DNA from: Solibacillus sp. R5-41
GTDB taxonomy: Bacteria > Bacillota > Bacilli > Bacillales_A > Planococcaceae
NCBI RefSeq assembly: GCF_002736105.1
Contig: NZ_CP024123.1
Span: forward strand, 2,410,001-2,474,000
Reading direction: 5' to 3'
Length of the DNA: 64,000 bases
Below the pieces are notes generated by a model. It searched no databases. It had not been told where the DNA came from and saw only the letters and a list, made by a program, of their open reading frames with translations. Positions 15,410-23,675 of the stretch are shown here, piece by piece. The position numbers and the translations under genes are program-made. How positions within the stretch are numbered: position 1 is the stretch's first letter; each line of letters begins with the position of its first letter.

Positions 15410-18221
15410 ATCTTTCCCACGACTAGATAAAAACATTCGTAGTCAATTTCTAAAAATGTTGTTTAAAGTATCCATTACATTTTTAATAATCGTGATTGTT
15501 TTCTTTTTGTATGTTAAATCTAGTAATGAGAGTTTAAAAGTAGAACGAGAAGCTGTAAGGGAAAAAGCAGAAATTGTAGGTGGACTAGCGGATAGTTTTA
15601 ATGGCATTAATTTCAGGGCTAGAGGGTATTATGCATTTCAAAATAAACAAGAACTACAATTATTACATGAAAATTTAGAGGAATTCGAATTATATTTAAA
15701 TAAATTCGGTCAATTACCTCACACAAAAGAAGAAAAAGCATTGTATGAAGAATTACTTGAATTTAGTCAAAATTATAAAACAGTCATCCTCCCTCAAGCT
15801 ATAAGTTATGTAGATGCAAATGACTATGAAGCTTTAAGGAAGCTTTCCGGCGATGGGACAAATAATCTTGTAAATAAATTTGTAGCCTATACAAATACTT
15901 ACAACAAAAAAAATGAGATTGAATTAAACAATTTATTCTCAAAATCGATTGAAAAGGCTCAAAATTTCACATTAATATCCCTATTATTAGGAATAATTCT
16001 TCTATTTTTTGTAGCAATCATAATGCGCAGAGTACTTTCTAATGTGATTCAACCAATTGAGCAGTTAACAAATGCTACAAATGCCATAACATCAGGACAT
16101 TTCATAGATCTTAGTAGTCTAGTTCAGAAAGAAGATGAGCTAGGTATTTTAGCTAATTCATTTCATAAAATGACGATGTCTATTCAAGAGAAAGAAGAAG
16201 TTTTGACGACTCAAAATGAAGAACTGACTGCACAACAAGATGAATTACAGGGAAATCAAATTCAATTACAACACTCACTAAGTCAGTTACAAAAATATAA
16301 TGATTTGAATCATGTTTTAACGTTCACACTCGATAAACAACAATTATTGGAGAATCTTAACGAATATTTAAATGATATCTACAAGTTCGATACTAGTATC
16401 TTGTATTTATTAGAAGGGCATGTTTATGTATCTAAAGGGTTAACAAAAAAATCAACCGAGCTTCTTGTTGGCAACCTTAATAAAGATAAACAAGTTCGTT
16501 TAGAGGAAGAAAAGTCTTTTGTCATTACGCGAAAAGTAATTCCAGGTGCACAAGATATTGCACAACACCCCTATTATTGCTATGACCTCTATTCATCTGT
16601 CTTGAATTCTGAGGGGCATTTAGTTGCTGTTATGATGGCTACTCGAGAAGGTTTTCCATTTACTTGTCATGAAATAGAAGATTTAAACGGATTAATGAAT
16701 CGTGTGTCTATCGCCTTTGAACGTATACTAATGTATGAAGAAGTTGAGCGTTCACGACAACTGAATCAAAATATTATTGACAATGTAAATGAAGGAATCC
16801 AACTGGTATCCTCCACAGGAGATGTTGTCTTAGTCAACAAAGCGTTATCTCAAATAATTCCTTCACAAAACAAATTAAACAAGCAACATGTTTCTCAACA
16901 AACTTGGCTGGAAGATTTACAGAATATTTGTGATCATCCCGAAGAATTGACTCATTTTTTCACAGAAGCTGTTGTAGAGGATTTTATAGATAAAAGAACT
17001 TTCCGCTATTCAATTTCACAAAGTACTCAAGTTTTTGTTGAAGTATATGCAACCAGCGTGTATGAAGGTGAAGAAAAAATTGGAACTATGTTTGTTCACC
17101 GTGACATCACTAGAGAATACGAGGTAGATCAAATGAAATCTGAGTTGGTAAGTACAGTTAGTCATGAACTACGTACGCCATTATCTAGCGTCTTAGGATT
17201 TACTGAGCTTTTGTTAACAAAAGAATTAAAACCGGAACGTCAAACAAAATATATTGAAACAATTCATAAGGAAGCTGTTCGTCTAACAAATCTAATTAAT
17301 GATTTTCTTGATTTACAGCGAATGGAATCTGGTAAACAACAGTATAGTATGCAGCAACTATCAATGGATGAGCTATCCATTAATATCGTTAACCGATTCC
17401 GTCACGAAACGAACCATCATGTACATTTAATTGATAAAGCAAAATTCGTGAATGTGAACGGAGATTCAGAAAGACTAGTTCAAGTATTTATTAATATCAT
17501 CGGGAATGCTATCAAGTTCTCCCCCACAGGAGGCGATGTGACCATATCTCTCGAAAACGTCAATGAAATGCTGCAAGTTAGTGTAAAAGATCAAGGAATT
17601 GGTATCCCCAAAAATGAAATTCCAAAACTATTTCAGAAATTTAAACGAATTGATAATAGTTCAAGACGACAAATTGGTGGTACTGGGTTAGGACTATCAA
17701 TTTGTAAAGAAATTATTACCAAACATGGTGGCGATATTTGGATTAATTCAGAAGAAGGACAAGGGACAACCGTATACTTTAACTTACCACTTAACATTAA
17801 GACTTCAGCAAGACAAAATATTGAAGGAAATGATTTAGATGAAGAACAAACTGGTTTAAACGTTATGATCATAGAAGACGATTTAAGTTTAGCCTTACTC
17901 TTATCAGAAGAATTAAAAAGTAAAGGTTTTACTGTTCTTTTTCATGATAATACGAGGCTTGCTTTTGAAGAAGCGCTTCAAACACCTTTAGTTGGAATTG
18001 TGATTGATTTAATGCTAGGAGATGAAATAAACGGATGGGATTTTGTACAACTCCTAAAAGAAACAGAACAAACAAGTAAAATTCCAATTATTATTTCTTC
18101 TGCATTAGATGAGTCAAAAGAAAACGTTGAAAAATACAACATTGAAAAGTATTTTACGAAACCATACCCTCCAGAAGAACTTTCAAAAATACTTGTGGCA
18201 TCCGTAGTTTGCCAAGTATAG
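15402..18221 (+). CDS. Membrane hybrid sensor histidine kinase
   Basis: The 939-residue protein has a transmembrane helix near residues 18-38, then an extracellular helical sensor region of about 150 residues (CHASE3-like by position) and a second helix near 190-210. A HAMP linker (RRVLSNVIQPIEQLTNATNAI), a coiled coil, a GAF-like and a PAS-like region follow. HisKA comes next with the H-box STVSHELRTPLSSVLGF (His588). The ATPase domain has N-box FINIIGNAIKFSP, VKDQGIGIP and GGTGLGLSI. A C-terminal receiver carries Asp in VIDLMLG and Lys in TKPYPP. It overlaps the upstream receiver gene and is followed by a terminator. It probably drives a phosphorelay to the HPt-GGDEF protein. Confidence 0.93.
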   Translation: MYKSFPRLDKNIRSQFLKMLFKVSITFLIIVIVFFLYVKSSNESLKVEREAVREKAEIVGGLADSFNGINFRARGYYAFQNKQELQLLHENLEEFELYLNKFGQLPHTKEEKALYEELLEFSQNYKTVILPQAISYVDANDYEALRKLSGDGTNNLVNKFVAYTNTYNKKNEIELNNLFSKSIEKAQNFTLISLLLGIILLFFVAIIMRRVLSNVIQPIEQLTNATNAITSGHFIDLSSLVQKEDELGILANSFHKMTMSIQEKEEVLTTQNEELTAQQDELQGNQIQLQHSLSQLQKYNDLNHVLTFTLDKQQLLENLNEYLNDIYKFDTSILYLLEGHVYVSKGLTKKSTELLVGNLNKDKQVRLEEEKSFVITRKVIPGAQDIAQHPYYCYDLYSSVLNSEGHLVAVMMATREGFPFTCHEIEDLNGLMNRVSIAFERILMYEEVERSRQLNQNIIDNVNEGIQLVSSTGDVVLVNKALSQIIPSQNKLNKQHVSQQTWLEDLQNICDHPEELTHFFTEAVVEDFIDKRTFRYSISQSTQVFVEVYATSVYEGEEKIGTMFVHRDITREYEVDQMKSELVSTVSHELRTPLSSVLGFTELLLTKELKPERQTKYIETIHKEAVRLTNLINDFLDLQRMESGKQQYSMQQLSMDELSINIVNRFRHETNHHVHLIDKAKFVNVNGDSERLVQVFINIIGNAIKFSPTGGDVTISLENVNEMLQVSVKDQGIGIPKNEIPKLFQKFKRIDNSSRRQIGGTGLGLSICKEIITKHGGDIWINSEEGQGTTVYFNLPLNIKTSARQNIEGNDLDEEQTGLNVMIIEDDLSLALLLSEELKSKGFTVLFHDNTRLAFEEALQTPLVGIVIDLMLGDEINGWDFVQLLKETEQTSKIPIIISSALDESKENVEKYNIEKYFTKPYPPEELSKILVASVVCQV

Positions 18222-18296
18222 TAATACGGTAATCTCAGTATTAAATTCCTAATTTTAAAATAGATTGTAGGACAAAATACGTTAACTTGTCTTTGC

Positions 18297-18333
18297 ACGA
18301 CCCAAGTGAATTTATTCGCTTGGGTCGTTTTTG
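18297..18333 (+). terminator. Intrinsic terminator of the signalling cluster
   Basis: CGACCCAAGTGAA-TTTA-TTCGCTTGGGTCG followed by TTTTT, about 75 bases after the kinase stop codon. Confidence 0.85.
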
Positions 18334-18405
18334 GCTTATAATTTCTATTACCAACCCTGTAATGGACTTTCACCAACGAGTTGTTGCGCAAGCCGGGCAC
18401 ATTAA

Positions 18406-18443
18406 AAAAGTACCTTGGAATTTTTACTAATTCCAGGTACTTT
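18406..18443 (-). terminator. Intrinsic terminator of thyA
   Basis: On the minus strand AAAGTACCTGGAA...TTCCAAGGTACTT is followed by TTTTT a few bases after the thyA stop. Confidence 0.85.
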
Positions 18444-18447
18444 AATT

Positions 18448-19428
18448 TTATACAGCTATTGGTGCTTTAATCGTTGGATGCGGGTCATAGCCTTCGATCG
18501 TTAAATCTTCCAACTCGATATCGAAAATTGATTTTTTTGCTACATTGATTGTTAATGTTGGCAAGTCTTTTAGTTCGCGGCTTAGCTGCTCTTTCACTTG
18601 CTCGACGTGGTTCGAGTAAATATGCGCATCCCCAATACTATGCACGAACTCCCCTACTTCTAGACCACATTCATGTGCAATTAAATGTGTTAATAAAGCA
18701 TAGCTTGCGATGTTGAATGGAATGCCGAGGAATGTATCCCCACTACGTTGCGTCAACATGCAGCTTAACTTTCCATTAGCTACGTAAAATTGGAACATCA
18801 CATGGCAAGGTGGTAATGCAGCCTTACTTCCTTTTGCGCCGGCATTAATAACATCTTCAGGATTCCATGCGTTGACAATGATGCGACGAGAATCTGGATT
18901 GTTATTAATTTGGTCAATGACATCTTGGAGCTGATCAATTTCATTTCCTTCTGAGTCTGTCCAACGGCGCCATTGTTTCCCGTATACATTGCCTAGTTCC
19001 CCATATTTTTCAGCAAATGAATCGTCTTCTAATACACGCTCACAATAAGAAGCCATTTCCGCTTTGTAAAGTTTGTTGAAATCTTCATCTACTAAACAGC
19101 GGTTTCCGAAATCTGTCATATCGGGACCATCATATTCATCCGATTCCACCCAGCGCTTAAACGACCATTCATTCCAAATATGATTATTATTTTGCAATAA
19201 GTAACGAATATTCGTATCACCTTTAATAAACCAAAGAAGCTCACTCGCAACAAGCTTAAATGGCACACGCTTCGTCGTAAGTAACGGGAATCCTTGCGCT
19301 AAATCAAAGCGCATTTGATGACCGAAAACGCTATACGTCCCCGTTCCTGTACGGTCTTCCTTTTTTACACCATTATTTAAAATAGACTGTAAAAGATCTA
19401 AGTATGTTTGTTCTAGTTTATTTGCCAC
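18448..19428 (-). CDS. thyA: Thymidylate synthase
   Basis: ThyA methylates dUMP to dTMP using methylene-tetrahydrofolate. The 326 residues are the long form (as in Lactobacillus casei), with the extra loop around residues 90-140. Signature regions are [42 protein letters not shown] with the catalytic cysteine, [25 protein letters not shown] and HIYSNHVEQ. It starts at ATG with a GAGGTGC site and stands alone with its own terminator. A dihydrofolate reductase gene, a common neighbour, is absent. Confidence 0.98.
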
Positions 19429-19646
19429 GATCGTGCACCTCCGAAATATTTCACTTACCCATTATAGCTGAAATTTTTCTTTTTTGTAGAATTTACGTGG
19501 AGGTTTTATTATCTTTTATCGTACGCACTAAACTTAATTGTTCATTGATATGGAATATGGTTAATATTAAATATGAAATCGTTATTAGTAAGCCTGAGTA
19601 CACAAGTATTGATTTATGTTTATCAAGACTATTTGAAACCTGATTA

Positions 19647-19721
19647 CCTCCCAGGCAGGATTCGAACCTGGGACTGACGGCTTTGTAAACCCGTTGCTCT
19701 ATCTTGCTGAGCTACTGAGAA
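19647..19721 (-). tRNA. tRNA-like sequence, probably degenerate (anticodon region TAC)
   Basis: On the minus strand a cloverleaf can be drawn. The acceptor is TTCTCAG/CTGGGAG, the D stem GCTC/GAGC, and the T arm CAGG-TTCGAAT-CCTG, with a good T-loop. The anticodon arm ACGG-GTTTACAAAG-CCGT has one base too many, giving a G.G mismatch or an 8-base loop; TAC would read valine codons. No CCA is encoded and the first T-stem pair is mismatched. I regard it as a tRNA pseudogene or a divergent tRNA. No other tRNA gene was noticed in the window. Confidence 0.5.
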
Positions 19722-19761
19722 TACTGTATTAATGAATAAAATAATCTACTATTCGGTTTAT

Positions 19762-20955
19762 TTAATTCTCACGCCTTTGTTTTTTCGCCAAATAAACCAA
19801 CAAGACAAGCATGAACATTGTCTGTACTAAAAATACAATAGCATCCCAAAAAGCTGCACGATCTCCTGCTCCCAGAATATTTAAATAAATTGTACTAAAC
19901 ATATAATAGAGCTGCGGTAAAAAATACAAAACTGTCAAAAGTAACGTCAAAAAAACTCCGACTATGTAAAATGCACTATATATACGAATCAAATTCCATT
20001 CATCCTGGAACATCTCTTTATGATCCTTCCCTGATTTCCGATGTTTATTAAGGAATGAACTTAAATATATTTTGCCACTCTCCATCAGGTTATAACATCC
20101 TGTTACATTTTCTACAACATAATATACATCTGTTTTCATATAGAAACAGCATTGATATATTGATTTAATAAAAATATCTAACACGATGATGCTAAGAATT
20201 CCTACAAAATTTGCATTTGGAAAAAGAAGCATAAAACCGAATGAAAGGAAAAGAATGATCTGCTCAAAAGACATTCCCGCAAGATACAGGATATTCCTCT
20301 GTTTAGGTTCAAGTTTCCACGCCTGAGTCAGGTCGGTTTCAAAAACAATAAAAATCAGCCGGTTTCCGATACTTAATTTAGCTGGCAAATCATACGATCG
20401 AATGGCAAGGATATGCCCAAATTCATGAATTAAAATTAATACTATAGAAATCAATAGATAATTAATTACATTTAGCACCATGGAATCGAATAGGAATATG
20501 TCTTTGTAATGGGGAAAAAGTTCTGGATTCAGTATAAGAATTATTACGTTCGATACTAGCAGAAGCAAGTAAACCATGTTCATCGTTCCATTAAAAAACA
20601 AACGTCCAACCCAGTGAGGGACCCATAAGAAACCACCTGCATCAGATGCAGATTTAGCCCGCTTCTCTTTATCTCTATTAACTCGGACCCCATCCACTTC
20701 TTGAACAATGCCTAACTCCACCAATTGCTCCACAAATTCAATGATATCCACTTCTTCCTCAGGATAAGAATCTTTTAGTGTCTTTTCAATCGCAGCTAGT
20801 CCTTCACCTTTGTCCAATCGTTTAATTGCATCAACACTTATCTCAGGCAATTCAAAGAAATCACCAGAAATCGGCTCCTCCACGATATAATTTTTGCTAT
20901 CTTTTTGAATGGATAGCGGATATAACGTTATTTCGGATTGCAAGGATACCTTCAA
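19762..20955 (-). CDS. Membrane M50 zinc metalloprotease with PqqD-like N-terminal domain, probable peptide-maturation protease
   Basis: Residues 1-90 (ISGDFFELPEISVDAIKRL...VEQLVELGIVQEVDG) have the compact layout of a PqqD-like RiPP recognition element that binds precursor leader peptides. The rest is a multi-helix membrane protease: HEFGH at 177-181 supplies two zinc ligands and the glutamate, and MKTDVYYV (Asp276) fits the third-ligand position of YydH-type peptide zinc metalloproteases. The start is TTG 20955 with a perfect GAGGAGG site. The gene lies 64 bases downstream of a 22-codon peptide gene, beyond a terminator-like hairpin, so it is likely expressed by read-through. Cleavage or export of that peptide is inferred from this arrangement. 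Confidence 0.85.
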   Translation of the reverse strand: MKVSLQSEITLYPLSIQKDSKNYIVEEPISGDFFELPEISVDAIKRLDKGEGLAAIEKTLKDSYPEEEVDIIEFVEQLVELGIVQEVDGVRVNRDKEKRAKSASDAGGFLWVPHWVGRLFFNGTMNMVYLLLLVSNVIILILNPELFPHYKDIFLFDSMVLNVINYLLISIVLILIHEFGHILAIRSYDLPAKLSIGNRLIFIVFETDLTQAWKLEPKQRNILYLAGMSFEQIILFLSFGFMLLFPNANFVGILSIIVLDIFIKSIYQCCFYMKTDVYYVVENVTGCYNLMESGKIYLSSFLNKHRKSGKDHKEMFQDEWNLIRIYSAFYIVGVFLTLLLTVLYFLPQLYYMFSTIYLNILGAGDRAAFWDAIVFLVQTMFMLVLLVYLAKKQRREN

Positions 20956-20970
20956 CGTATAGCCTCCTCT

Positions 20971-21007
20971 ATAAAATAAAATAGGATGCTAAAATTACAG
21001 CATCCTA
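20971..21007 (-). terminator. Hairpin between the CWWCWW peptide gene and the protease gene
   Basis: On the minus strand TAGGATGCT-gtaatttt-AGCATCCTA is a perfect 9-bp stem, followed by TTTTATTTTAT. Placed just after the peptide stop and before the protease, it should give far more peptide message than protease message, a usual ratio for precursor and maturation enzyme. Confidence 0.8.
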
Positions 21008-21019
21008 AAACGTACTTAC

Positions 21020-21088
21020 TCATCCTACTGGAGTCCACCAACACCACCAGCAAGTCACTTTAATTTTATTTAGTTTGCGAATTTTCAT
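21020..21088 (-). CDS. 22-residue Trp/Cys-rich peptide (CWWCWW core), candidate RiPP or signal precursor
   Basis: The frame opens at ATG 21088 with a strong AGAGGAGGAG site lying inside the 3' end of the HD-GYP gene, overlapping it by 23 bases. The product has a basic N-terminal half (MKIRKLNKIKV) and a C-terminal half TCWWCWWTPVG with four tryptophans and two cysteines. Such a composition is most improbable for chance coding. The basic start may be a leader recognised by the PqqD-like domain of the next gene. A hairpin terminator follows immediately. I know of no described family with this core; a membrane-active peptide is an alternative. Confidence 0.7.
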   Translation of the reverse strand: MKIRKLNKIKVTCWWCWWTPVG

Positions 21089-22262
21089 GTTTTTCTCCTC
21101 CTCTCATGTTCATACCCTTCCGATATGTTTTAGAAATTTGCATCCATTGGGGGTAAACCTGTTTAAATAATTCGATAAGTTGTGGATCGAACTGACTCCC
21201 TTGTCCATCGAGAATTCGTTGATATGCTTCTTCAAATTGAAGTGCTGGGCGATAGGATCTGGATGAAGTCATCGCATCAAAAGCATCGGCCACCGCCGTA
21301 ATTCTAGCTAAAAATGGAATATCTCCCCCTGATAGTCCATCTGGATACCCTTTCCCGTCCCATCTTTCATGATGGTGGTAAATCACTTCAAGATTATCGG
21401 CAATCCCGTCAACTTCTCGAATAGCTTCGGCTCCAACAACCGGGTGCGTCTTAATTATATCATATTCTTCATCTGTTAATCTACCAGACTTTGTTAAAAT
21501 TGAGTCGGGAATATTAACTTTTCCAATATCATGTAACAGACAGGCGTAATAAAAATAATTTAACTCAGATGGTTTAAATTTTCCAGTAGCTTCCGCCATG
21601 TTCATTGCATATGCAGCAACTCGTTCACTATGTCCACGAGTATAGGGATCCTTCAACTCTAGAATAGCAATAACTCCCTTAACAATACCTTCCAATTGTT
21701 CGTCGTACGAATATTTCAATGCTTTAATATAATTTAAAAAACGAAGCAGTAGTAAAAAGGAAATAAATGATAGTACAATCAATGCACTAATTGGAAACAA
21801 AACCAATGGATCATGTATAAATATACCAACCAAAATATATTTTAGAATTAAACCACCTGTAATAAAATATGTAAATTTTTTATTCACAAAAATCGGTGAG
21901 AAAAGGACAATTACAAGTTCTACCATGTTTCCACTAGTGTAAGTAAGCGTACTATCTTTATAATACAATATATCTGAAACTACATTCGTTAAAAAATAAC
22001 CGGAAAATAATATGTATTTTACAGATTTTGTTTTCTCCGTTTTTATCAAATAAATAGATAAAGGGATGAGCGCAAATATGATTCCATATTTAAAAAACAT
22101 AAAATCGTCCCATTTGGAACTCTTTGCATTAACATCGCCCCATGGAAATGCTGGGAAAAGATTATAATAAATTATTTCATAAACAAAAAACACAACAAAA
22201 AATAGCCATAAAAATAGTACCGTTGAATGCTTTTCTTCTTGTAACAAAGATGTTTTCTTCAT
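21066..22262 (-). CDS. Membrane HD-GYP domain phosphodiesterase
   Basis: The 398-residue protein has about six hydrophobic segments in its first 185 residues, then a cytoplasmic HD-GYP domain. Motifs are DPYTRGHSERVAAYA, LLHDIGKVNIPDSIL, THPVVGAEAI, YHHHERWDGKGYPDGLSGGDIPFLARI and AVADAFDAMTSSRSYRPAL. The HD dyad and the GYP-type motif (here KGYPDGL) are present, so it should hydrolyse cyclic di-GMP. ATG follows AAGAGGTGA. Its last codons carry the ribosome site for the CWWCWW peptide, so translation of the two is coupled. Whether cyclic di-GMP regulates the peptide is an open question. Confidence 0.9.
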   Translation of the reverse strand: MKKTSLLQEEKHSTVLFLWLFFVVFFVYEIIYYNLFPAFPWGDVNAKSSKWDDFMFFKYGIIFALIPLSIYLIKTEKTKSVKYILFSGYFLTNVVSDILYYKDSTLTYTSGNMVELVIVLFSPIFVNKKFTYFITGGLILKYILVGIFIHDPLVLFPISALIVLSFISFLLLLRFLNYIKALKYSYDEQLEGIVKGVIAILELKDPYTRGHSERVAAYAMNMAEATGKFKPSELNYFYYACLLHDIGKVNIPDSILTKSGRLTDEEYDIIKTHPVVGAEAIREVDGIADNLEVIYHHHERWDGKGYPDGLSGGDIPFLARITAVADAFDAMTSSRSYRPALQFEEAYQRILDGQGSQFDPQLIELFKQVYPQWMQISKTYRKGMNMRGGEKHENSQTK

Positions 22263-22367
22263 TTTTCACCTCTTAATTTTCGTAATTTATTTACCAATCA
22301 AACGACCTTATGTTCCACATCCAACTAAAACACGAGAATATCATTTGTAATATTTCCTATTTATCTT

Positions 22368-22532
22368 CTAAAAGCAATCCTCTATCAAACCCGCAATCAT
22401 ACTAGACTGAAGCTGATTATCAATTTTTAGAACGCTCTGAGTACAAATACCTTTATCTAATACATCTAAAAATCTAAATTTATCTAAAACACCCGGGAGC
22501 TTTAATGCCATACCGAGTGATGACGATATCAT
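22368..22532 (-). CDS. Possible small protein, 54 residues
   Basis: An open frame from ATG 22532 to TAG reads MISSSLGMALKLPGVLDKF, then FLDVLDKGICTQSVLKID and QSSMIAGLIEDCF. It looks protein-like (amphipathic, balanced composition). Its ribosome site is weak: AGGTG lies about 13 bases upstream. It lies just upstream of the HD-GYP gene in the same direction. No family is recognised and it may be a gene fragment. Confidence 0.3.
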   Translation of the reverse strand: MISSSLGMALKLPGVLDKFRFLDVLDKGICTQSVLKIDNQLQSSMIAGLIEDCF

Positions 22533-22969
22533 CCAATTATTTCACCTACAAATTTCTATTTTATACTACAAAATTAGGTCCAACCTACACCGAACAGGTC
22601 TTTAGATCTTTTATTTTAATATAAAATTTCATTTCTTTATTACTGTAATTATAGTGGTTTTTTTTAAAATGTAAATGAAACTTTGTAATAATCAGGTATT
22701 AATTCCAACGGTATTTTTTCCGTTCTGGTGCAAAACAGTTAACTTTGTGAGGAATAATAAAAAGTAGTTAGAAGAACTAATGGGTTAAAATTTATAGTTG
22801 GTTTTTAAAATGGATTACATTGTACAGATTATTGCTTTAAAGTTTCTTAATTTATTTCCAATCGCAAATTTCACTTAACCCTTTATAGCCTAAATATCGG
22901 ATTGTTGTATGAGCTGATATCGATTATGTGGTTCCTTCATTTTTATGTATCACTTAAAAATGGGCACAA
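22533..22969. other. AT-rich intergenic stretch without recognised gene
   Basis: About 440 bases lie between the possible small ORF and a terminator at 22970-23013. The composition is AT-rich with stop codons in all frames. I see no RNA gene, repeat or clear promoter. Confidence 0.5.
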
Positions 22970-23013
22970 TAAAAGGCGCTGCTCGTATTACTTTTGCTGA
23001 GCAACGCCTTTAG
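22970..23013 (-). terminator. Intrinsic terminator
   Basis: AAAGGCGTTGCTCAGC...GAGCAGCGCCTTTT on the minus strand forms a long hairpin about 50 bases after the stop of the 23061-23252 gene. Confidence 0.7.
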
Positions 23014-23060
23014 TCAAATGTGTCTAAATCATCGTAAAGTTCAATTGTTTTTTCCAATTA

Positions 23061-23252
23061 CTAAGTAGCCTCCTTTAGGATTGTCTTATTGTTTTCAAGA
23101 ATGTGAATGAATTGATTTAAAATCTTCTCCTCCATTTTAAAAGAGATATTCACTTCTTTTGCAATAATTTTATTTAGTTCTAAAATTGTGCTTACGTCGA
23201 GCTTATGTTTTTCCGCTAATTGGAATGCTCGCTCTAACTGACCGGTCACCAT
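23061..23252 (-). CDS. Small hypothetical protein, 63 residues
   Basis: The product (MVTGQLERAFQLAEKHKLDVS...ELNKIIAKEVNISFKMEEKIL) is predicted all-helical and soluble. The ATG is preceded by AGGGGGA. The size recalls Spo0E-type aspartyl-phosphate phosphatases, but the SQELD signature is absent, so no function is assigned. A terminator follows. Confidence 0.6.
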   Translation of the reverse strand: MVTGQLERAFQLAEKHKLDVSTILELNKIIAKEVNISFKMEEKILNQFIHILENNKTILKEAT

Positions 23253-23675
23253 CGGCAGTCCCCCTTTTCATATGATATGCTCTAATTTTACCTTATTTAC
23301 TCAAAAATTTCACCTATCCAAACAAAATTTTTAAGTAATTTTTGTATAATAACGAATATTTATACTGTTTACGTAGCTTGTTCGGTAAAAAAATTACTAA
23401 CACCTCCCAATGGATTTGTACTTAGAACCGTCTGAATCGCTAGCAAATTTGTCTGACCCTTAAATTTCGCTAACATTCTCAGTTCTTGTACGGAATTTAC
23501 ATCCGTTCTTAATAAATATTTTTTGCTGTTTTATAATATTCATTCATTAAATTATATAGGTATTTTTGTTAAGTAGGTTTCAAATGATTCTAAAAGTGTT
23601 CTATATTTTTACTATGGAATGTTGTTTTAATAAATATTTATGGAATTTTTCCCTTGTGAAATTGTAGTAAAAATC
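23253..23675. other. Intergenic stretch without recognised gene
   Basis: About 420 AT-rich bases with no open frame of coding character and no recognisable RNA. It contains the upstream region of the 63-residue gene on its left side. Confidence 0.5.

What the first reader, a model, noticed from the sequence alone, without database searches (positions are those of the whole stretch)
19762..22262. A 22-residue CWWCWW peptide gene between an HD-GYP gene and a PqqD-like/M50 protease: candidate new peptide system
Seen: ATG 21088 with AGAGGAGGAG encodes a basic N-terminal half and a TCWWCWWTPVG end. Its ribosome site lies inside the HD-GYP gene. A perfect 9-bp hairpin with T tract follows, then a TTG-started membrane protease with HEFGH and a PqqD-like N-terminal domain. 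Known: PqqD-like (RRE) domains bind RiPP leader peptides, and YydH-type M50 proteases mature or export small peptides such as YydF. Inference: the peptide is the substrate, the hairpin sets a high peptide-to-protease ratio, and cyclic di-GMP turnover may be tied to peptide production. No radical SAM, lanthipeptide or ABC gene is adjacent, so the system would be unusually small, or the tailoring enzymes lie elsewhere.
Basis: partly seen in the sequence, partly recalled or inferred. Interest (0 to 1): 0.88.

Follow-up and report, generated by a model that had tools for sequence, protein, structure and literature searches.

The report
Conserved CWWC peptide signalling cassette
A 22-residue peptide gene, a membrane enzyme that probably matures the peptide, and a membrane sensor that probably breaks down the messenger cyclic di-GMP stay together across several families of bacteria, which suggests a very small, undescribed peptide-signalling system.

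Summary
The 22-aa frame (21088-21020, -) is a real, conserved gene: in 97 of 97 complete loci from at least four families it lies between a MASE12-HD-GYP gene and an M50 protease gene. Consensus MKIRKLKK[VI]K[TVA]TCWWC plus a variable 2-10 residue tail; leader dN/dS 0.07, tail 0.43. In 398 genomes of the class, peptide, close protease and MASE12 domain each occur in the same 9. The protease N-terminus folds like leader-binding RRE domains. HD-GYP and M50 active-site residues are kept in 97 of 97. In one family a MASE12 histidine kinase lies just upstream. In two loci that lost the protease, apparently independently, the leader has decayed but CWWC persists. Best reading: the RRE-M50 protease binds the basic leader and releases a CWWC peptide, which the six-helix MASE12 receptor senses, changing c-di-GMP turnover. 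That the protease is the peptide's partner is near certain; that MASE12 is the receptor is inferred. No tailoring enzyme is shared by the loci compared.

The parts
21066..22262 (-). MASE12-HD-GYP gene, 398 aa: predicted six-helix membrane sensor plus c-di-GMP phosphodiesterase domain
   Evidence: Pfam MASE12 6e-59 and HD_5 1.4e-40; six N-terminal helices and HD-GYP fold in the model; HD, HH and GYP residues kept in 97 of 97
21095..21104 (-). Ribosome-binding site AGAGGAGGAG of the peptide, inside the HD-GYP gene
   Evidence: read; at least 5 of 6 letters of AGGAGG upstream of the peptide in 97 of 97 loci
21020..21088 (-). Peptide gene, 22 codons plus stop: basic leader MKIRKLNKIKVT, core CWWC, tail WWTPVG
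   Evidence: conserved in 97 of 97 complete loci; leader dN/dS 0.07, tail 0.43
20982..21007 (-). Perfect 9-bp hairpin (TAGGATGCT / AGCATCCTA), terminator-like
   Evidence: strong stem in 64 of 97 loci against 1 of 291 shuffles; covariation
20972..20981 (-). Interrupted T tract TTTTATTTTA after the hairpin
19762..20955 (-). RRE-M50 membrane metalloprotease gene, 397 aa, TTG start
   Evidence: H-E-x-G-H and K-T-D kept in 97 of 97
20680..20955 (-). RRE/PqqD-like domain of the protease (residues 1-92)
20413..20427 (-). HEFGH zinc-site codons (residues 177-181)

Best explanation
A minimal peptide-signalling cassette. Step 1 (shown by conservation): the HD-GYP and peptide genes overlap or nearly touch, and a hairpin separates them from the protease gene. 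Step 2 (strongly supported, not shown biochemically): the RRE domain of the M50 protein binds the basic leader MKIRKLKKVK, and the membrane metalloprotease cuts near the invariant Thr12/first Cys, releasing a hydrophobic CWWC-plus-tail peptide, probably to the outside, where CWWC could close as a disulphide. Step 3 (inferred): the product is sensed by the six-helix MASE12 domain and changes the activity of the attached HD-GYP c-di-GMP phosphodiesterase; in one family a second MASE12 protein, a histidine kinase, may read the same signal. It would work like agr or ComQXPA (names and logic recalled), but with c-di-GMP breakdown as output.
For: Exact three-way co-occurrence in 9 of 398 genomes, each part found by its own search. 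In four family searches covering 475 genomes, 98 genomes have a clear MASE12-HD-GYP: 96 of them have peptide and protease directly downstream and the other 2 a peptide without protease. Two protease losses in separate clades: leader decayed (4 and 7 of 8 conserved positions changed, against at most 3 in 97 complete loci), CWWC kept. The leader is the most constrained part and the tail the least. RRE fold. Active-site residues kept in 97 of 97. MASE12 occurs on two different outputs, HD-GYP and histidine kinase, as a sensor would. Repeated loss of HD-GYP, peptide and protease together, leaving the kinase: 15 genomes with only a MASE12 kinase lack the peptide and the close protease.
Against: No binding, cleavage or export is shown. 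The tail does not co-vary with MASE12 beyond HD-GYP relatedness (partial Mantel r 0.03, p 0.135), while it does correlate weakly with HD-GYP given MASE12 (r 0.16, p 0.005). MASE12 kinases occur without the peptide in 15 genomes. One HD-GYP gene with a weak MASE12 match (G504, L234) has neither. The membrane part of the protease model is poor (mean pLDDT 62.9) and Foldseek E-values for the RRE matches are only 0.06-1.6, none under 0.001. No exporter is shared by the loci compared.
Confidence: 0.58

Rival explanations
1. Cell-autonomous microprotein switch: the peptide stays in the producing cell's membrane and directly regulates the MASE12-HD-GYP protein (and kinase), and the RRE-M50 protease removes it in regulated proteolysis. 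No export and no cell-cell signal.
For: Overlap or near contact of HD-GYP and peptide genes (51 of 97 overlap) suits stoichiometric partners; no exporter is shared; M50 proteases act in membranes (established knowledge).
Against: The RRE domain fits binding of a leader for maturation rather than disposal; both protease-less loci keep CWWC but not the leader.
Confidence: 0.22
2. A RiPP-type modified product (cofactor-like, metal-binding or antimicrobial): CWWC is modified by an enzyme encoded elsewhere, the protease releases it, and HD-GYP/kinase only regulate production.
For: RRE domains usually recruit modifying enzymes (established knowledge); M50 proteases TglG/TmoG release modified residues in pearlins and EpeP makes an antimicrobial epipeptide (passages of PMC10885120); cationic, Trp-rich peptides can be antimicrobial (recalled).
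Against: No modifying enzyme, ABC exporter or immunity gene is common to the 24 loci compared, although only up to about 10 kb each side was seen; the tail varies freely.
Confidence: 0.12
3. Regulatory leader peptide: ribosome stalling on Cys/Trp codons controls the downstream hairpin and hence protease expression (attenuation).
For: Tandem Cys/Trp codons with a terminator-like hairpin 1-33 nt after the stop.
Against: No anti-terminator pairing: 0 of 57 loci reach 0.8 of the terminator stem score; mean ratio 0.46 against 0.44 in shuffles. Leader amino acids are conserved beyond the Cys/Trp codons (dN/dS 0.07) and Trp is replaced by Phe, Tyr or Ile in 8 of 97 peptides. The downstream gene has no link to Cys or Trp metabolism.
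Confidence: 0.04

Closest known systems
Epipeptide system epe/yyd of B. subtilis (EpeX/YydF with M50 protease EpeP/YydH)
   Same: Short ribosomal peptide with a membrane M50 protease thought to cleave and export it (abstract and passages of PMC7026026; passages of PMC10885120)
   Different: Epipeptides need a radical SAM epimerase and have an ABC transporter; neither is shared here. A c-di-GMP enzyme is not part of that operon. Homology to EpeP was not tested.
Quorum-sensing systems agr and ComQXPA (recalled)
   Same: Peptide gene, membrane or processing enzyme and multi-helix membrane sensor side by side; conserved leader and variable end
   Different: Other protease or modifying enzyme families; here the sensor carries HD-GYP or a kinase without an adjacent response regulator seen by eye; no tail-sensor co-variation found
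Enterococcal sex pheromones processed by the M50 protease Eep (recalled)
   Same: M50 protease releasing a short hydrophobic peptide signal
   Different: Those come from lipoprotein signal peptides and Eep is not RRE-fused or co-encoded (recalled)
RRE-M50 with ThiF/E1-like or TPR partners (relatives found here)
   Same: Related RRE-M50 proteins (best E per genome 1e-68 to 4e-7 to the profile, in 30 other genomes of 398) and, in many, a short Lys-rich-leader peptide nearby
   Different: No MASE12 in those genomes; other peptide cores; other partner genes
Daptide biosynthesis intramembrane metalloprotease (NF041824)
   Same: Weak match of the membrane protease part, E 9.5e-4
   Different: 18.4 bits against a cut-off of 300; no daptide genes seen

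Membership tests
RRE-containing peptide-maturation protein | PqqD/RRE winged-helix domain that binds leader peptides | tested here: met
M50 metalloprotease | HExxH zinc motif in a membrane helix plus a conserved distal Asp | tested here: met
   H-E-x-G-H and K-T-D in 97 of 97; HEFGH lies in helix 158-188 of the model. Pfam M50 18.2 bits against a cut-off of 27.2.
HD-GYP c-di-GMP phosphodiesterase | HD, HH and GYP metal-site and signature residues | tested here: met
   97 of 97; Foldseek to HD-GYP structures at E 3e-8
HD-GYP c-di-GMP phosphodiesterase | Hydrolysis of c-di-GMP | not testable with these tools
   needs an assay
RiPP | Ribosomal precursor with a conserved leader and a separate core | tested here: met
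   leader decays when the protease is lost
RiPP | Post-translational modification beyond cleavage, with a modifying enzyme | tested here: inconclusive
   No modifying enzyme shared in 24 loci, but an enzyme encoded elsewhere is not excluded
Epipeptide | Radical SAM epimerase at the locus | tested here: not met
   no such gene shared near the loci
Daptide protease NF041824 | Curated score of 300 bits | tested here: not met
   18.4 bits
Peptide quorum-sensing system | Secreted peptide that activates a cognate membrane receptor | not testable with these tools
   genetic linkage only
Peptide quorum-sensing system | Peptide variable part co-varies with the receptor domain | tested here: not met
   partial Mantel tail-MASE12 given HD-GYP r 0.03, p 0.135; many real systems need not show this over six residues
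Amino-acid attenuator | Alternative anti-terminator pairing with the terminator arm | tested here: not met
   0 of 57 loci reach 0.8 of the terminator stem score; observed mean 0.46, shuffled 0.44

The most novel reading that the evidence does not exclude
MASE12 is a receptor class for a secreted CWWC peptide, so that one pheromone directly controls a c-di-GMP phosphodiesterase and, in one family, also a sensor kinase that may feed the sporulation phosphorelay: peptide quorum sensing that writes straight into second-messenger turnover without a response regulator. The RRE-M50/ThiF and RRE-M50/TPR loci would be further branches of the same short-peptide superfamily.
Probability: 0.4. Interest if true: 0.93.

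Novelty: new variant of a known kind. Interest (0 to 1): 0.86.

Why it matters
What signals control membrane-bound c-di-GMP enzymes is largely unknown (general knowledge). Here a sensor domain for which I found no described ligand has a gene-encoded candidate ligand next door in 98 of 98 genomes with a clear MASE12-HD-GYP found by four family searches, in 96 of them with a dedicated protease. That makes ligand identification directly testable. The peptide matches no Pfam, NCBIfam, PHROGs or PADLOC model, so related systems may be widely overlooked.

Tried and rejected
Attenuation by Cys/Trp codons: tested, not supported. Pherotype-like co-variation of tail and MASE12: tested, not found; weak correlations leader-RRE given MASE12 (r 0.13, p 0.010) and leader-MASE12 given RRE (r 0.09, p 0.010) do not single out one partner. 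Phage origin: no PHROGs match; IMG/VR gave 242 pattern matches, none confirmed. Defence system: PADLOC gave only HD-domain matches to Cas3 models for the HD-GYP protein (best E 9.5e-7), none for protease or peptide. Plasmids: 27 of 72,556 records hold relatives of the protease, all under 60% identity, 21 of them Streptomyces. PDB by sequence profile: one match, E 0.064, a lipoate-ligase subunit. Rfam in 18000-23500: only a tRNA match.

Lipobox idea: both protease-less peptides have a lipobox-like triplet before the first Cys (ITAC, IVSC), but so do 2 of 97 with the protease, and the leaders are short for signal peptides. Kept only as a curiosity.

Crude steps: M50 start codons were not resolved in 14 of 97 loci, so hairpin counts there are lower bounds; avoids this with a fixed 85-nt stretch. 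The 109 close pairs for dN/dS are not independent, pairs were picked by a string-similarity ratio of the protease, and no ratio could be given for CxxC because synonymous sites were saturated. The 44 sequences were chosen mostly because a hairpin was seen (43 of the other 96 loci plus the window). Two doubly held records (L019, L020) were dropped before the counts. Of 30 stretches around distant M50 relatives, my ORF picker recovered the M50 in 28; L107 and L115 were not recovered. The partner genes there are Pfam-tested in 4 cases (3 ThiF, 1 TPR), the rest judged by eye. The comparison for shared neighbours used 24 loci of 11.6-23 kb, one of them (L066) without peptide.

Literature: ten searches, judged by listings and abstract starts, showed no paper on such a cassette. 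Of the two hits for MASE12, PMC7190382 (passages) holds only locus tags; the other, on image processing, was seen in the listing only. PMC10885120 and PMC7026026: passages only. Absence is claimed for those searches alone.
Full report
WHAT IS THERE. On the minus strand the window carries, in order, a MASE12-HD-GYP gene (22262-21066), a 22-codon frame (21088-21020, MKIRKLNKIKVTCWWCWWTPVG), a perfect 9-bp hairpin (20982-21007) followed by TTTTATTTTA, and a TTG-started 397-aa membrane protein with HEFGH (20955-19762). Pfam finds MASE12 (6e-59) and HD_5 (1e-40) in the first gene, and matches below the cut-offs to Peptidase_M50 (0.0016) and PqqD (0.0031) in the last. The window lies in a 4.28-Mb single-contig genome.

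IS THE PEPTIDE REAL. The protease was found in 15 of 101 genomes, among them 12 of the 16 same-genus genomes searched, window included. Apart from the two most distant (L015, L016; 25% and 23% identity), every protease locus, down to 44% identity, has the peptide just upstream: 16 of 16 distinct loci. A profile of 14 peptides against 398 genomes of the class gave 9 matches at E <= 5.9e-5; the next is 0.0027. With the protease profile the same 9 score E < 1e-137, and 30 further genomes have more distant relatives, best E per genome 1e-68 to 4e-7. With Pfam MASE12: exactly the same 9, and 0 of 14 control genomes. So three different queries pick the same 9 of 398 genomes.

Four family-level MASE12 searches (22 of 250, 66 of 111, 23 of 110 and 3 of 4 genomes) and the stretches around the hits, with L021, gave 119 distinct loci after two doubly held records were dropped. 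Of these 97 are complete HD-GYP/peptide/protease sets (21, 50, 22 and 3 from the four searches, plus L021). Nineteen loci hold only MASE12 histidine kinases, without peptide or protease. Two have HD-GYP and a peptide but no protease. One (L234, G504) is an HD-GYP gene with a weak MASE12 match (34 bits) and neither neighbour. There are 90 distinct peptides. Leu6, Thr12 and both Cys are invariant in 97 of 97 while their codons vary; the core is CWWC in 89, CFWC in 4, CWIC in 2, CYWC in 1, CWFC in 1. Net charge over residues 1-12 is +5 or +6 in 92 of 97. Among 109 close pairs dN/dS is 0.07 for residues 2-12 and 0.43 for the tail. Starts are ATG 86, GTG 6, TTG 5; the distance from the HD-GYP stop runs from -23 to +64 nt, with overlap in 51 of 97 and -4 the commonest value (30 of 97).

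THE SENSOR. The model of the window's HD-GYP protein (seven sequences, mean pLDDT 69.3) shows six N-terminal helices before the HD-GYP domain; Foldseek finds HD-GYP structures 4r8z, 4mcw and 9rbz at E 3e-8 to 1e-6. HD, HH and GYP residues are kept in 97 of 97. MASE12 is the most diverged domain (mean pairwise identity 0.41; HD-GYP 0.70, RRE 0.51, M50 0.50). In the G150 family 49 of 50 complete loci have a MASE12 protein with kinase motifs upstream, and the fiftieth (L242) a MASE12 protein without the motif; L021 has one too; none of the other 46 complete loci has. Pfam confirms MASE12, HisKA and HATPase_c in 3 of 3 kinases tested. The best NCBIfam matches of one are AtoS, ZraS and the sporulation kinase KinD, all far below their cut-offs, so a sporulation role is a guess.

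NATURAL EXPERIMENTS. L238 (G708) and L270 (G641, listed at 5% contamination) lack the protease. Their HD-GYP proteins fall in separate clades (9 members, support 0.999; 14 members, support 0.995), so the losses look independent. Their peptides, MNILKLKKLITACWWCAWLGV and MKLIRFLMLIVSCWWCLWWQP, depart from 8 conserved leader positions at 4 and 7 places; in the 97 complete loci the count is 0 in 74, 1 in 21, 2 in 1 and 3 in 1. Taking loci as independent, 2 of 2 against 0 of 97 has a chance of 1 in 4851 (my arithmetic). CWWC is unchanged in both. So the leader appears to be kept for the protease and the CWWC core for something that remains, and HD-GYP and kinase are what remain. Conversely, 15 genomes with only a MASE12 kinase lack the peptide (best E 0.04) and the close protease: one keeps a 52-residue protease remnant (G637) and one has a distant relative (G638). 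The kinase can thus live without the peptide; the HD-GYP form nearly never does.

THE HAIRPIN. A strong stem occurs within 85 nt of the peptide stop in 64 of 97 loci against 1 of 291 shuffles. In 44 sequences chosen mostly because a hairpin was seen, a 7-pair stem is paired in 98.1% of cells and 4 pairs have changes on both sides (reached by 2 of 500 shuffles). T runs after it are 3-5 long in 50 of 61, so partial termination with read-through is plausible; that it sets the peptide-to-protease ratio is inference.

OTHER GENES. In 24 compared loci, apart from M50 (24 of 24) and the cluster that holds HD-GYP and kinases (23 of 24), no gene cluster is shared by more than 12, the next being ABC-transporter-like by eye. 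So no common modifying enzyme or exporter lies within the stretches seen.

MECHANISM. Shown: a conserved gene set with kept active-site residues. Strongly supported: the RRE-M50 protein is the peptide's partner (co-occurrence, fold, leader decay upon loss). Inferred: cleavage near Thr12 and the first Cys, export, disulphide closure, binding to MASE12, change of c-di-GMP. The tail does not track MASE12 beyond HD-GYP relatedness (partial Mantel r 0.03, p 0.135), which speaks against strict pherotypes, though a short tail carries little signal.

WIDER SETTING. Distant RRE-M50 relatives lie beside ThiF/E1-like proteins or TPR proteins (Pfam in 4 cases, otherwise by eye). Short peptides with Lys-rich leaders recur beside them: MKKxxxKKTExVKLT..LY..C-like in 8 TPR loci (L120-L126, L129), at least four distinct ones in L126; and MKIQAKKVESVRTTAVAA-like upstream of the ThiF gene in 7 loci (L109-L114, L118). 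A 29-aa TPR-locus example matches no Pfam or NCBIfam model, a 21-aa ThiF-locus example no NCBIfam model. The window's cassette looks like one branch of a broader RRE-M50/short-peptide superfamily.

NOVELTY. Each part is of a known kind (RRE, M50 peptide protease, HD-GYP). The combination, with a dedicated c-di-GMP phosphodiesterase sensor as near-constant partner, did not appear in the ten paper searches made (listed under Tried and rejected).

Noticed in passing
L120-L126 and L129, e.g. L121 171 nt upstream of the M50 gene: Short peptides MKKxxxKKTExVKLT..LY..C (e.g. MKKMSIKKTEAVKLTTAASLYGEPCWVIA) recur upstream of distant RRE-M50 genes that are followed by a large TPR protein; at least four distinct copies in L126.
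   Followed up: partly
L109-L114 and L118, about 1.2-1.35 kb upstream of the M50 gene; L116, L117: Short peptides MKIQAKKVESVRTTAVAA or MKKIKIKKVEKLVALVNHHA upstream of a ThiF/E1-like gene and an RRE-M50 gene: possibly another undescribed peptide-maturation pair.
   Followed up: partly
window 19647-19721 (-): tRNA-like gene with a four-base anticodon reading (taca) by ARAGORN, just downstream of the protease gene; Rfam tRNA 37.3 bits; no tRNA in 14 related loci scanned and no exact copy in loci of other genomes.
   Followed up: partly
L238 and L270: Both protease-less peptides have a lipobox-like triplet before the first Cys (ITAC, IVSC), perhaps a switch to another processing route; 2 of 97 complete loci have it too.
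   Followed up: partly
L302, L306, L312, L315, L323 and the HK-only loci of the G150 family: MASE12 histidine kinases away from any peptide gene, in some genomes beside a complete cassette elsewhere (G752, G728, G782, G797): eavesdroppers, remnants or other ligands.
   Followed up: partly
window about 41300-61600: A run of phage-like structural genes by eye (tape-measure-, portal- and terminase-like ORFs), probably a prophage.
   Followed up: no
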